The notes under the pieces: generated by a model | Told to the model about the DNA's origin: nothing | What the model saw: only the letters and a program-made list of their open reading frames with translations | Databases searched by the model: none | Made by a program: the position numbers and the translations under genes | In this document: positions 20,552-25,407 of the stretch, in pieces | Layout of the letters: every line of letters starts with the position of its first letter | Position numbering within the stretch: position 1 is the first letter of the stretch | Assembly (NCBI GenBank): GCA_036023115.1 | Contig: JAYKKT010000059.1 | Location: forward strand, 8,009,001 to 8,073,000 | Direction: 5' to 3' | DNA from: Brasenia schreberi | Taxonomy: Eukaryota > Streptophyta > Magnoliopsida > Nymphaeales > Cabombaceae | Length of the DNA stretch: 64,000 bases

Positions 20552-20898
20552 TGTTGGAATTACGGAAAAACACAGCAAATAATAAACAATATAATATATT
20601 GATAAAGGAAGAAGACTAACAATGGAGATCGGAGGAGGGGGCGGACCTCCAATGGAGCCCCCCCCCCCCCCCTCTTTCTCTCTCTTTCTTAATCCCAGCA
20701 ACCTTAAACCCTAATGCAGCCTATCAGTCCTTATATAAGGAGATGTAAAACATAAAATGACCAAAATACCCCTAGTACAGAAAATTACCAAAATGCCCTT
20801 ACGAATTCAGACAATTACAATAATACTCTAAACATCAATTTTACTGTCCTAAGACATTTTATGTACTAAAACTGACTCTAAACTCATATTCTTCAACA
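20552..20898 (-). repeat. Element A 3' LTR
   Basis: 347 bp, minus-strand sense TGTTGAAGAATATGAG...TAATTCCAACA. A TATATAAGG box is near 20735 and a run of about 15 C is at 20658. The small reading at 20516-20701 falls in this LTR and is not a gene. Confidence 0.9.
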
Positions 20899-21039
20899 CC
20901 CCCCCTCAAGTTGGGAGTGGGATACTTCGAACTCCAAACTTGCCAAAAATCTTCATCAACAGCTTCTTTGGCTGCAACATTTTTCATCAGTCTTCATCAC
21001 TGGTTTAATCTTCAACAACTTCTTTGACTGCAATATCTT

Positions 21040-21390
21040 CAACTCAGCCTTCCTGGCTGATCATATCAAGCATCATCTCTGGTTGCAATATAAACTTAGC
21101 CTTCCTGGCTAATCATCTCAAGCAGCATCTCTAGCTGCAACATCAACTCAGCCATCCTAACTGAGCATCTTAAGCAGCATCTCTGGCTGCAACATCAACT
21201 CAGCCATCTTGGCTGATCATCTCAAGCAGCATCTCTAGCTGCAACATCAACTCAACCCTCCTGGCTAATCATCTCAAGCAACATCTATGGCTGCAACATC
21301 AACTCAGCCTTCCTAGCTGATCATCTCAAGCAGCATCTCTGGCTGCATCATTACCTCTGTCTTCCTGGCTGATCATCATCATGACTTTCT
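21040..21390 (-). repeat. Internal tandem repeat of element A, unit about 52-54 bp
   Basis: Roughly six units of the form TCAACTCAGCC...CTGGCTGATCATCT followed by CAAGCAGCATCTCTGGCTGC, with scattered changes. More degenerate units continue to about 22110. The same unit, in the other orientation, occurs at 46660-46900 in the second element, so it is a hallmark of the family. Confidence 0.8.
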
Positions 21391-22574
21391 TATCACACGT
21401 GCACTAGTAATTTCTTCGAGGCTTCTGTAAAACAACTTTGTAAAACAACTTGAACAATTAAGAACACATGGATAACACCCGACCCTTCTATGGGTGTCGG
21501 TTGCTCCCTCTCTTTTTCTTCTTCTCCATAAAGTGATTTGGCAGGTACACTTAGAAAAATCATGTTTCTTCTGCTCTTGAGAAAGCTGATCTTTTGTGAT
21601 AGGAGGTATTACTCCACCATACACACTTCACAAGGCTTTTCCTGCGCCCCTTCACATGGTGGCTGCAGCCGGTATGTTGGTTGGGTGCCCTCTCTCTACC
21701 ACTCAAATAGCACAATACAGACATCTGTTTATACTAGTCGGTCTGGGCCCCTTCACATGGTGACTTCAGACGCTTTTCCAGCCCTCCTGGCTGTTTACTT
21801 CAACAACCCAAGGTCTTAACTTTCATGCTTCTTGATGATACTGCCACATTCCATATCAAATTCTTCTGGCCTCTTTGATGATTTGATTTGTCATGCATAT
21901 GTGGTAAAAGAAGACTGATTTTCTGCATTCTTCTGAATTTTTCAGCTCTTTGATTATCCATTTTTCCAAGTAATTTTCTTTGCTTCATGGTTGTAATCTT
22001 CTGTAACTTATCCTTCTTAGTTATTCATCTTGAACATCTGCATAGCTGCACTATTTCTTCAGCAGTTTTCATTGCTGCAAAGTAACTTTCAGTAGCCTTC
22101 ATGGCTGCAATACACTCTTATCCATCTCCACATAATTATAAATAAACATCAACTTGTCCAAATCTCATACCAAGAGCATTAATAATCCTGATACAACTCG
22201 AGCTGTAATCTCACAGAAGATTAATTTATAAAACTCACCCATCATTTTCCCACCGAACTCTGAAAGAATCTGGGAGACAGATTGGTGGCAGCAGTAATTG
22301 ATTCACCATCCACAGATCTGCTATATGTTGCCAAATAATCATTGATATAATCATTGACTTTAGAAATACAAAATAAAGGAATACCATTCCATGAAACATG
22401 CGCACTTCCTTGCTTGAAAGGAGGTAATACTGTTGCCTCGTGGAGCTCATTTAGAGCAGCTGATTTCATCTTATGTTCAGCAGCTTCCTCACCAGATTAT
22501 TTGGTATAGTCCTTTACACTGTCAACAACATCCTTAGGATTTTGTTTAACTTTATTTTTGTTGGGTGCGTTGGA

Positions 22575-22735
22575 GAAGCATAATGGCTAGATCCAATTTG
22601 TAATAAAGCTGTCGTAAACCATGTTGAGGGATCACTCGGGAGGCATAGCTGCTTTTCAGCATCGGAAAGAATTTTTAATGCATGCTTTAGTCTTTCAAGT
22701 TCAACTTCATTTAGACTTTGCTGAACAAAAAACTA
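22575..22735 (-). pseudogene. Captured fragment of a STICHEL-like gene
   Basis: The minus-strand reading has LNEVELERLKHALKILSDAE followed by KQL and, after a few residues, STWFTTALLQIGSS. This is the characteristic stretch of plant STICHEL/STICHEL-like proteins (AAA-type, DNA polymerase III gamma/tau-like), where SEAEKQLR and STWFTATLLQLGS occur. The match is from memory. An in-frame stop lies just upstream (SKAVD, stop, FFVQQS). It is too short to act, and in sense orientation within element A. Confidence 0.7.
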
Positions 22736-22749
22736 ATCCACTGCCTTTG

Positions 22750-23035
22750 AAGCGACTGAGGTGGCAAAAGCCAATTGGACTAATCGTTCCTTCTACTTAG
22801 TTTGTCTCCCTGTAGTTCAACAAGAGAGGACATCATCATAGAATCCCGAATGAACTGGATGTTGTATGTTAATTTCCCAACTCGATTGAAATTTGTAATT
22901 ATAGAAATAGGAACCCATCCTTCCTTATCCATGTTCTGCCGCAAGTATATATCTTTACATAAATTCTCATTGCTGAAATAATACTCTATCCTTTTTAACT
23001 AATAAGGCACACAATTGAGGATCTGGCAGGACAAA
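22750..23035 (-). pseudogene. Captured La-motif fragment of a LARP1-type gene
   Basis: The minus-strand reading has PDPQLCALLVK, a one-base frameshift, then IEYYFSNENLCKDIYLRQNM, DKEGWVPISIITNFNRVGKL and VELQGDKLSRRND, then a stop where Trp is expected. IEYYFS, ENL, WVPI and the closing RRND are hallmarks of the La motif in plant La-related protein 1 b/c. La motifs bind RNA 3' ends or poly(A). This fragment directly abuts the STICHEL-like piece, so two unrelated genes are joined inside one element. Confidence 0.8.
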
Positions 23036-23109: not shown

Positions 23110-23338
23110 GAGCCAGTGGCATAGGCATAGTTTCTATGAGTTGTTTTGCTTTGTCTAGAAGTCCAGCACGACTAAGGAGTTCCACCACTCGAAATACATT
23201 CTCCGCAGTAACTATACCGAATGTTTCTGCAGTTTCCCTAATCATAATGCCCCACGATCCAGTGAAGCCTGGCATATTACTCTCACTGACTAGAATAGTA
23301 GCACCGTGTAAATCTGCAGTCAGCAAGCATTGAGCCAT
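23110..23338 (-). pseudogene. Captured PPR-like fragment
   Basis: The minus-strand reading contains [20 protein letters not shown] followed by IETMPM. It resembles the end of PLS-type PPR proteins (VDLLGRAGxLxEAxxLIxxMPM). The N-terminal half (MAQCLLTADLHGATILVSES) is not recognised and may come from another source. Confidence 0.5.
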
Positions 23339-23559
23339 CTGATTTAAATTTACAAACTAACAAGCCTCTTGAAACATCAAAGTCTGTTTCTGGACACAAG
23401 TTTGTCCCCAATCAATGTAATCTTCCAACCACTAGCTTGAAGCTTGAAGACAGAACCTCTTTTAGGTACCCTGCAGACGTAATGCTCAACTCTTTGTGTA
23501 TGTGTGAGGACAAGTAACGAACTATACATTGCCCTGCACTTCTGTGGTATTTTCAAGTC

Positions 23560-23760
23560 CCATGATTTCTTTTTTCTTAACAAATGAGACGAGATCCACT
23601 TCATAATACAATGTGGAGTTTATATGCACAGTGATTAAATCTTGGAGTGGTTCTGAACCAAAAATATATCCAGGAGAAATCATTACTAAATCCACTTCTC
23701 CCTTCTGCATCGTCATCACAACTCTGTCCAAACTCCATAAATCATACATTAGATTTGGAT
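23560..23760 (-). pseudogene. Captured FKBP-type peptidyl-prolyl isomerase fragment
   Basis: The minus-strand reading has LDRVVMTMQKGEVDLVMISP, GYIFGSEPLQDL and STLYYEVDLVSFVKKK, then a frameshift, with SWDLKIPQK in the next frame. This is the end of an FKBP domain and the start of the linker in plant FKBP62/65 (ROF1-type) co-chaperones (KKGEVALV, AFGS, VYYEVELVSF, ESWDM). It is the fourth host-derived piece in element A and in the same orientation as the rest. Confidence 0.8.
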
Positions 23761-24264
23761 TGTTGCTCCACTTCCATCCGTGTGATTTTATTCACATGCT
23801 ATAACTAACCACATTTCTTTTTGTGCATTCACTTTCTTTGTGCAGATGATGGGTAGCAGTTATCTTCTTTCTTTCCTAAAAAAAATGAGACTTTTCCTTC
23901 TTTTTAGAATCATTCTTATCTTGATTTCTTTCCCTTATCATTTCCATCAAATCAGGAAAGTAATTTCCATAACTATCTTTCTGGTTTGCTTTCCACAAAA
24001 TCAGGAAAAGTAATTTGCAACTTCTATTTCCAGCATTTGAAATTCAAAAAATAAAGTTACCTTTCTCAAACAATTCATATCTTCCTTTTCAATATTTTGT
24101 GGGACCTTCTTTAAAAATCTGGAAAAAAAAATTGGTTCAGCCACAATTGTTACCTTTGGCAGCCAGCAACTTCCTTTTTCGTCTTCTTCTACCTTGAGAG
24201 GAACTTTACCCTAAGCTGCAAGACCAAACATCAGCCACAGATTGGGGAAGGCAACCCAGCTTAG

Positions 24265-24531
24265 CTACTCATAAAATTCATCAAATAAGCCTGAAAAACC
24301 AGGCTTCAAATGTTTGCTCGCAGACCACAATATTTTTGATCTTCGGTCAAGAGATCTGCTATGACTTGACCCACTTAGGAAGGGTAAGTTAAGTCCTTCA
24401 TCTAGCTGAGATAGGTTAATGGGTAGTCTCACATTACCAATTTTCTTCATGGGACAACGGGTAATGCACACATGCACTGGTGTTTTCTCTCCATTATACT
24501 GGACTTCCTCTTTAGAGAGAAGTTTTTCCAT
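24265..24531 (-). CDS. Unidentified 88-codon reading inside element A
   Basis: The open frame MEKLLSKEEVQYNGEK... to ...GFSGLFDEFYE lies near the 5' end of element A in sense orientation. I do not recognise it. It could be another captured fragment or a chance frame. No gag-like motif is visible. Confidence 0.25.
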   Translation of the reverse strand: MEKLLSKEEVQYNGEKTPVHVCITRCPMKKIGNVRLPINLSQLDEGLNLPFLSGSSHSRSLDRRSKILWSASKHLKPGFSGLFDEFYE

Positions 24532-25063
24532 TAAAAGAAATCTCCAAACCTCAACCTCTTTTCTATGACCAGCTTCTCACGTTTACTTCTCAATAAGATC
24601 TCTGATATTATGTTGATTTGATGAGAAATAAATCAGAAAATCCAATGAACAAAATCAAGAATCAAAAATAACTTGAAAGGTCTGGTCAGCATTCTACATC
24701 CAATCTAATATGTAGCAGGTCACGACTGTCTTGACTATAGACTGAGATTCAGTCCCTCTTGTTTTTACTGAATCGACATAGAAGAGATTGAAGCTATGCT
24801 GAATGCAATAGACACAATGCACCATTCAATAATATGTCAATCTGTTTTTTATTGTATTACAAAAAACAGGTTTTGAGTGCTGAAAAAAATGACTCCACAA
24901 AACACCTTTGAAATCTGCTGTTGAAAGGTCACTTATCGTATCAAACTAACCTTGGAATCTGCTTCAAAACTGAACCAAGTCTTACCCTTGAAACTGAATA
25001 ATCACAATCACACTTTGCTGCCTTCTCCACGATCAATTTTCCAGGATTTAGGCTCTGATACCA

Positions 25064-25407
25064 TGTTGGAATTACGGAAAAACACAGCGAATAATAAACA
25101 ATATAATATATTGATAAAGGAAGAAGACTAACAATGGAGATCGGAGGAGGGGGCGGACCTCCAATGGAGGCCGCCCCCCCCTCTTTCTCTCTCTTTCTTA
25201 ATCCTAGCAACCTTAAACCCTAATACAGCCTATCAGTCCTTATATAAGGAGCTGTAAAATATAAAATAACCAAAATACCCCTAGTACAGAAAATTACCAA
25301 AATGCCTTTACGAATTCAGACAATTACAATAATACTCTAAACATCAATTTTACTGTCCAAAGACATTTTATGTACTAAAACTGACTCTACACTCATATTC
25401 TTCAACA
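25064..25407 (-). repeat. Element A 5' LTR
   Basis: 344 bp partner of the LTR at 20552, next to the primer-binding site. The C-run here is shorter (GGCCGCCCCCCC at 25168). Confidence 0.9.

What the first reader, a model, noticed from the sequence alone, without database searches (positions are those of the whole stretch)
20552..25407. A complete LTR element that carries pieces of at least three unrelated host genes instead of gag-pol
Seen: paired LTRs, PBS, PPT and a near target duplication, with sense-strand fragments resembling STICHEL-like, LARP1 (La motif), FKBP62-type and probably PPR genes placed end to end. Known: gene capture by LTR elements is rare and best known from maize Bs1. Inference: this is a non-autonomous, gene-shuffling LTR family, possibly mobilised by a copia element with a similar primer site.
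Basis: partly seen in the sequence, partly recalled or inferred. Interest (0 to 1): 0.9.

Follow-up and report, generated by a model that had tools for sequence, protein, structure and literature searches.

The report
Plant jumping element hoarding host genes
A plant LTR retrotransposon that seems to have no genes of its own carries a chain of fragments of several unrelated host genes, at least two of them copied from spliced messages, and relatives elsewhere in the same genome carry other fragments in the same part of the element, so the family has picked up host genes repeatedly.

Summary
Confirmed and extended. Window 20552-25407 is a real LTR element on the minus strand: LTRs 333/344 identical, TGGTATCAGAGC primer site, polypurine tract, 4-of-5 bp target duplication, no gag-pol domain found. 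In the source genome the donor exons of p29 (3) and LARP1 (4) are separated by introns that the element lacks, so spliced mRNA was captured; donors of the other pieces were not found. p29 and LARP1 pieces recur together at 11 loci. A related element with both LTRs has FKBP-PPR-LARP1 but no p29: p29 entered the PPR piece later, without loss, in permuted order, at a short match. With a truncated second copy in this window, 13 members (p29-free relative not counted) fall into seven cargo groups that share ends but differ in cargo (e.g. PHD, phytocyanin, P4-ATPase, ABC1 kinase, tRNA synthetase, EF-G, CwfJ). No antisense Pfam hit in the 7 members so tested. Best reading: a non-autonomous LTR family accreting host mRNA pieces stepwise by template switching. 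Like Bs1 in kind, but with several cassettes and a before/after pair.

The parts
25064..25407 (-). 5' LTR (344 bp, TG...CA)
   Evidence: 333 of 344 aligned bases identical to the 3' LTR
20552..20898 (-). 3' LTR (347 bp)
25052..25063 (-). primer binding site TGGTATCAGAGC (initiator-Met type; tRNA name recalled)
   Evidence: 0 mismatches, directly after the 5' LTR
20899..20909 (-). polypurine tract TTGAGGGGGGG
   Evidence: same tract before the LTR of the second window copy at 47001
20547..20551 (.). left flank ACGGG, near target duplication
   Evidence: 4 of 5
25408..25412 (.). right flank ACGGA, near target duplication
24594..24687 (-). relic LTR end plus degenerate primer site resembling another copia-type element, inside the leader
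   Evidence: alignment score 72 against the copia 10717 LTR/PBS, best of 500 shuffles 32
23736..24199 (-). family backbone segment, parts of which are found in 10 of 11 delimited copies (not L032)
   Evidence: element positions 1209-1672; similarity stops at 1672 in L033, L042, L036
21988..23735 (-). cargo slot: host-gene mosaic of this subfamily
   Evidence: shared with L031 at 95.4%; no hit over 60 bases in the other delimited copies except about 70 bases at its end in L035
23567..23734 (-). FKBP62/65-type immunophilin piece (third FKBP domain)
23472..23530 (-). PPR piece, upstream half (VEHYVC), start approximate
   Evidence: contiguous with the downstream half in the relative L059
23345..23471 (-). 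RNase P p29 (POP4) last exon C, with its stop codon and some 3' UTR
   Evidence: 23470-23345 = donor mRNA 215-341, 120/126 identical
23188..23345 (-). RNase P p29 exons A+B, intron absent
   Evidence: 23345-23187 = donor mRNA 56-215, 151/159 identical
23090..23187 (-). PPR piece, downstream half ([21 protein letters not shown]), end approximate
22741..23026 (-). LARP1-type La-motif piece from four donor exons
22560..22732 (-). STICHEL-like piece (name recalled)
   Evidence: open frame 22514-22732; no library match
22242..22541 (-). coding-like stretch of unknown origin
   Evidence: no family match, only chance-level PDB hits (E 0.28 or more)
20987..21402 (-). 52-bp tandem repeats of the 3' internal region
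   Evidence: also in the second window copy
44510..47313 (+). second family member in the window, inside a LINE-like repeat, 5' LTR not found; 3' LTR from about 47012, its end uncertain by a few bases
45034..45126 (+). PPR piece in the second copy
   Evidence: PPR_2 6.1e-6, below Pfam cut-off
45469..45588 (+). PHD-finger piece in the second copy
46015..46218 (+). phytocyanin (plastocyanin-like) piece in the second copy

Best explanation
[quoted passage not shown] Host mRNAs are probably packaged with the element RNA in particles supplied by an autonomous copia element; reverse transcriptase jumps between RNAs at short matches, copies a stretch of host message and returns, and the chimera integrates and is copied again. 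Shown: real paired-LTR elements, sense-only cargo where tested, missing donor introns for p29 and LARP1, one p29-LARP1 cassette at 11 loci, different cargo in sister groups, and a before/after pair for p29. Inferred: packaging in particles, the autonomous helper, and template switching as the physical step. For p29 the likely jumps are: element PPR piece to p29 at a short match near the B|C exon junction, up through exons B and A, a jump to the p29 3' UTR at a shared AAA, up exon C, and back to the element at the point it had left.
For: Paired LTRs, PBS, PPT; ten further complete copies; over all 11, exact 5-bp target duplications in 7 and 4 of 5 bp in 4. No gag-pol Pfam domain in 3 sense frames (E up to 0.1). 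p29: exons A, B, C lie apart in the C45 donor with GT..AG introns of 117 and 2000 bp, absent from the capture; the two pieces meet at donor-mRNA position 215 without a gap. LARP1: four C47 exons over 12.8 kb, contiguous in the element. The same 11 loci hold the full p29 block (11 of 22 matches) and the full LARP1 query (11 of 42 matches); element context was looked at in 4 of the 11: this copy and L031 with both LTRs, L037 and L038 with cargo running into one LTR. Those four have identical p29 junctions. The relative C61:11176931-11181721 has both LTRs, backbone, FKBP-PPR-LARP1 but no p29, and its PPR piece is unbroken. Cargo differs between groups. Pfam hits only in sense: 0 antisense in 7 members (A and B, E up to 1; L033, L034, L042, and L036, L050, E up to 0.01).
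Against: Donors of the FKBP, PPR and STICHEL-like pieces, and of all cargo in the other groups, were not searched successfully (genome search mostly unreachable), so intron loss is shown for two donors only. The match at the p29-PPR joints is not clean: p29 donor and downstream joint read TGGTG, the upstream joint GGGTA, the relative TGATG. Three of four p29 ends lie within about 6 bases of exon junctions, which random microhomology switching does not predict. The autonomous helper is not identified. No transcript, particle or activity data. Cargo frames are broken (longest minus-strand frame 103 aa), so no cargo function is implied.
Confidence: 0.87

Rival explanations
1. The p29 block came from a circular template (a circRNA or a DNA circle of p29 exons) opened at one point inside the element's PPR piece, rather than from several jumps on linear mRNA.
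For: The p29 block is a gap-free permutation of donor mRNA 56-341 cut at 215, inserted without loss in the PPR piece; a circle needs one exchange, a linear mRNA needs three jumps. ABC1-kinase cargo in L034 and L048 is also in later-before-earlier order. A review passage reports circRNA-derived retrocopies flanked by LTRs in mouse.
Against: The C-to-A joint is not a canonical back-splice: in C45 the C part ends AATTTAAA followed by ATGC, and no GT stands at that point in C60 or C17; GT dinucleotides a few bases upstream exist, but the capture reads through them. The A part starts 3 bases inside its exon (exon start inferred from AG and from conservation).
Confidence: 0.2
2. DNA-level capture, as in Pack-MULEs or Helitrons, later enclosed by LTRs.
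For: Those elements often carry gene pieces (section read). One cargo group has a MULE transposase-like piece (below Pfam cut-off).
Against: Introns of p29 and LARP1 are precisely absent; cargo is sense only in the 7 members tested; the cargo lies between the LTRs of elements with their own target duplications.
Confidence: 0.04
3. Read-through transduction of neighbouring genes, under which the review files Bs1.
For: Described for Bs1, Rider and a TRIM (section read).
Against: p29 and LARP1 donors lie on different contigs (C45, C47); the p29 order is permuted and sits inside another captured piece.
Confidence: 0.04
4. The p29-free relative lost p29 by deletion, so it is not an earlier stage.
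For: Only one such relative was read in full; eight places could be of this kind but were not read, apart from this one.
Against: The PPR reading frame is exactly restored across the point, as in PPR proteins ([15 protein letters not shown]); a deletion would have to be exact to the base.
Confidence: 0.03
5. Ordinary host sequence between two independent solo LTRs.
For: The target duplication of this copy is imperfect (4 of 5).
Against: A sister element with the same interior (L031, 95.4% over the cargo) and an exact duplication elsewhere.
Confidence: 0.01

Closest known systems
maize Bs1
   Same: LTR element with pieces of three host genes (section read), exons only (passage)
   Different: described as one chimera; here seven cargo groups occur among 13 members of one family, with a before/after pair for one capture and a permuted insert
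soybean TRIM GmaRetroS15
   Same: non-autonomous, pieces of three genes, introns absent where described (passage)
   Different: gene-bearing TRIMs there are 1,172-1,449 bp; this one is 4,856 bp with 52-bp tandem repeats and sister cassettes
gene capture by maize, rice, sorghum and pepper LTR elements
   Same: host genes or pieces within LTR pairs
   Different: the maize survey reports no element with pieces of more than one standard nuclear gene; the pepper study mentions two or three genes in single elements without detail in the passages I saw
soybean element with a 10.5-kb insertion of non-coding and disease-resistance gene segments (as cited in the flax paper, passage)
   Same: mixture of segments within an LTR element
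   Different: original paper not seen; no information on introns or sister cassettes
LTR-mediated retroposition by template switching (Tan et al. 2016, seen only as cited)
   Same: mRNA joined into element cDNA at micro-similarities, several jumps possible (passage)
   Different: here pieces accumulate over successive rounds in a non-autonomous plant family
retrozymes
   Same: small non-autonomous plant LTR elements with about 350-bp LTRs (recalled)
   Different: no hammerhead or other Rfam match at gathering scores, none credible at E up to 1

Membership tests
LTR retrotransposon | paired LTRs with TG..CA, PBS, PPT, target duplication | tested here: met
   duplication exact in 7 of 11 copies, 4 of 5 bases in this one
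LTR retrotransposon, autonomous | gag, protease, integrase, RT, RNase H | tested here: not met
   no such Pfam domain in three sense frames or three antisense frames
Copia superfamily | RT phylogeny or domain order | not testable with these tools
   no RT in the element; only PBS/PPT resemblance to copia 10717-16307
TRIM | very short element (gene-bearing ones 1,172-1,449 bp in the survey) | tested here: not met
   4,856 bp
Bs1-like gene-transducing element | pieces of several unrelated host genes between the LTRs | tested here: met
Bs1-like gene-transducing element | captured pieces lack introns | tested here: met
   p29 and LARP1; other donors not tested
Bs1-like gene-transducing element | intact, expressed chimeric reading frame | tested here: not met
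   frames broken, at most 103 aa; expression not testable
circRNA-derived pseudogene | back-splice junction at splice sites | tested here: not met
Retrozyme | hammerhead ribozyme in the LTR | tested here: not met

The most novel reading that the evidence does not exclude
The family is a standing exon-shuffling device: a compact non-autonomous LTR scaffold with a permissive slot between two conserved backbone segments, in which host mRNA pieces accrete over successive replication rounds and whole cassettes are exchanged between family members, with some captures made from circular or end-to-end joined templates.
Probability: 0.3. Interest if true: 0.8.

Novelty: new variant of a known kind. Interest (0 to 1): 0.62.

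Why it matters
How retrotransposons pick up host genes is argued largely from isolated relics. Here one genome holds related elements at what look like successive stages: a shared backbone, then FKBP-PPR-LARP1, then the same with p29 inserted, then the same cassette at 11 loci. That makes the order, the joints and the templates of capture readable directly, and offers a family in which the rate of exon shuffling by an LTR element could be measured.

Tried and rejected
Back-spliced circRNA as p29 source: attractive at first (permuted order, single insertion point), rejected in its canonical form once the donor exons were read. Independent switch points for the two p29-PPR joints: rejected, because p29 and PPR each break at one point. 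Retrozyme: no Rfam match. PPR locus in 16310-20551 as donor of the PPR piece: no similarity reported at E up to 0.01. Family search in IMG/VR and bacterial genomes by a 20-base PPT pattern: 0 hits. STICHEL-like piece and the 22242-22541 and 24265-24576 frames: no convincing library match. Phytocyanin papers (passages) did not give an intron position, so intron loss in that piece stays untested. The LTR comparison was offset by one base; one search is the one used. Of 20 regions fetched around LTR copies, 11 were delimited as elements; 9 had no usable same-strand partner in the stretch and were dropped from pair counts (two, L037 and L038, were used for the junction comparison). L043 runs off its stretch and was left out of the duplication and age table. 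Sense Pfam scans covered 9 of 13 members (not L031, L032, L040, L043); antisense scans covered 7.
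Full report
What is there. The element runs on the minus strand of the window, from the 5' LTR at 25064-25407 to the 3' LTR at 20552-20898. The primer site TGGTATCAGAGC follows the 5' LTR without a gap and the tract TTGAGGGGGGG precedes the 3' LTR. The LTRs differ at 11 of 344 aligned bases, about 1.3 million years at 1.3e-8 per site and year (rate as used in PMC5664825, passage). The flanks are ACGGG and ACGGA. No gag-pol domain was found in three sense frames at E up to 0.1 or in three antisense frames at E up to 1.

Cargo of this copy. 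Joining the two p29 parts raises the Pfam score from 40.6 and 17.9 bits to 68 and gives a gap-free match to residues 130-203 of the p29 chain 6ahr. Joining the PPR halves raises the match to a synthetic PPR protein from 20.2 to 37.3 bits, though Pfam scores the joined piece only at E 0.11. So both genes look broken once, at one point, and joined to each other.

Donor genes and introns. The window lies in an unnamed 1.055-Gb genome in 92 contigs. The p29 block matches 22 places; 11 hold the whole block, the others hold exons or parts of it. In the C45 gene the exons lie in the order A, B, C, with GT..AG introns of 117 and 2000 bp that the element lacks; the C piece equals donor-mRNA positions 215-341 (120 of 126 identical) and the A-B piece 56-215 (151 of 159). 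The LARP1 query matches 42 places; 11 hold all of it, at the same 11 loci as p29, and 8 further places hold it contiguously from position 35-71 to the end. In the C47 donor it is spread over four exons across 12.8 kb; the element has none of the three introns. These two results show capture of spliced RNA. Of the 11 loci I looked at the element context of four: this copy and L031 have both LTRs; in L037 and L038 the cargo runs into one LTR. Donors of the other pieces were not found, because the search tool answered only three times.

Before and after. A relative at C61:11176931-11181721 has both LTRs, the backbone, and the FKBP, PPR and LARP1 cargo, but no p29: there the PPR piece reads on unbroken as [30 protein letters not shown]. 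In this element the p29 block sits exactly between TGCA and TG of that sequence, with nothing lost. The p29 donor (CGAG|TGGTGCC) and the downstream joint (CGAG|TGGTGGAA) share TGGTG; the upstream joint reads GGGTA and the relative TGATG, so the match that guided the joint was between 3 and 5 bases, depending on later substitutions. The A and C parts of p29 share AAA at theirs. Four copies (this one, L031, L037, L038) have the same joints. So p29 most likely entered once, later than the other pieces, and the product then spread; an exact deletion in the relative is the less likely alternative.

Circular template or jumps. The permuted, loss-free insert first suggested a circular RNA. The end of the C part, however, is not a 5' splice site in any of the three donor paralogues, and the A part begins 3 bases inside its inferred exon. 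A canonical back-splice is thus not supported; an irregular circle, or jumps of reverse transcriptase on linear mRNA with a return to the same point of the element RNA, both remain. That three of the four p29 ends lie within a few bases of exon junctions is unexplained. ABC1-kinase cargo in L034 and L048 also has its later part before its earlier part.

The family. From 20 fetched LTR regions, 11 elements were delimited; ten are complete and, with this copy, make 11, of which 7 have exact 5-bp target duplications and 4 have 4 of 5; LTR divergence is 0.030-0.086. Adding the second window copy gives 13 members in seven cargo groups: (I) this copy and L031; (II) L032, L036; (III) L033, L042; (IV) L034, L040, L043, L048; (V) L035; (VI) L050; (VII) the second window copy. 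The p29-free relative is not counted here. The members share LTRs and the 3' part with the 52-bp repeats (L040 and the second window copy only its end); 10 of the 11 delimited copies share parts of element positions 1209-1672 with this one. Sense-strand cargo: II CwfJ (5.4e-10); III P4-ATPase (6.4e-10), a zf-UDP RING (1.6e-23; cellulose-synthase type, recalled), and in L033 PPR, in both a MULE-like piece, these two below Pfam cut-off; IV ABC1 kinase (1.4e-27) and class I tRNA synthetase (4.6e-16); V a COPII/ERV-type hit below cut-off (2.3e-4); VI EF-G domains (down to 9.1e-32); VII PHD finger (5.5e-7), phytocyanin (4.1e-11) and PPR below cut-off. Sense scans covered 9 of the 13 members. Antisense scans of 7 members found no family.

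Second copy in the window. At 44510-47313, on the plus strand, a member without a detectable 5' LTR interrupts a LINE-like repeat, whose two parts flank it. Its cargo therefore lies within an insert and not in a free-standing host gene. Its phytocyanin piece aligns over 74 residues with mavicyanin with gaps of one or two residues only.

Recombination with other elements. Inside the leader lies a stretch like the end of a foreign copia LTR with a degenerate primer site. Similarity to L033, L042 and L036 stops at element position 1672, where similarity to the p29-free relative begins again; this suggests that whole cassettes are exchanged between family members, which is inference.

How it most likely works. 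Element RNA made from the LTR is packaged in particles of an autonomous copia element; host mRNAs come along; reverse transcriptase switches between them at short matches; the chimera integrates and is transcribed again. The shown steps are the structures, the intron loss for two donors, the presence and absence of p29 in related elements and the recurrence of the cassette; packaging, the helper and the switching itself are inferred from what is known of LTR elements (passages).

Compared with what is known. Bs1 carries three host genes (section read), soybean GmaRetroS15 three (passage); the maize survey found 425 elements with gene pieces and, under its conditions, none with more than one standard nuclear gene (passage); a pepper study mentions two or three genes inside single LTR elements (passage), and a flax paper cites a soybean element with mixed segments (passage). 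In eight paper searches I saw no LTR family described with several multi-gene cassettes in a common scaffold; I read listings, one review section, one results section and passages, and most subscription papers are not in that library. I call it a new variant of a known kind.

Noticed in passing
window 10717-16307, + strand: Copia element with paired LTRs (91.5% identical) and gag, integrase and RT domains spread over three frames, so apparently broken.
   Followed up: partly
window 16310-20551, - strand: PPR repeats in three frames next to the element: a decayed or intron-bearing PPR locus; no similarity to the captured PPR piece was reported.
   Followed up: partly
window 42656-44509 and 47314-47712: LINE-like repeat split by the second family member; about 165 bases of it and the 5' LTR of that member are missing.
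   Followed up: partly
L034 and L048, about element positions 1888-2330 of L034: ABC1-kinase cargo with its later part before its earlier part, as for p29; whether this is a habit of the family is open.
   Followed up: no
L031, p29 block: A 13-base insertion in the p29 piece that looks like a local duplication.
   Followed up: no
window 32091, - strand: Another LTR-like end followed by a one-mismatch primer site, perhaps a further copia-type element.
   Followed up: no
G000 places: Eight places hold the LARP1 piece from query position 35-71 on, one of them the p29-free relative; three to four more hold only its first 140-167 bases. They may be further stages of the cassette.
   Followed up: partly
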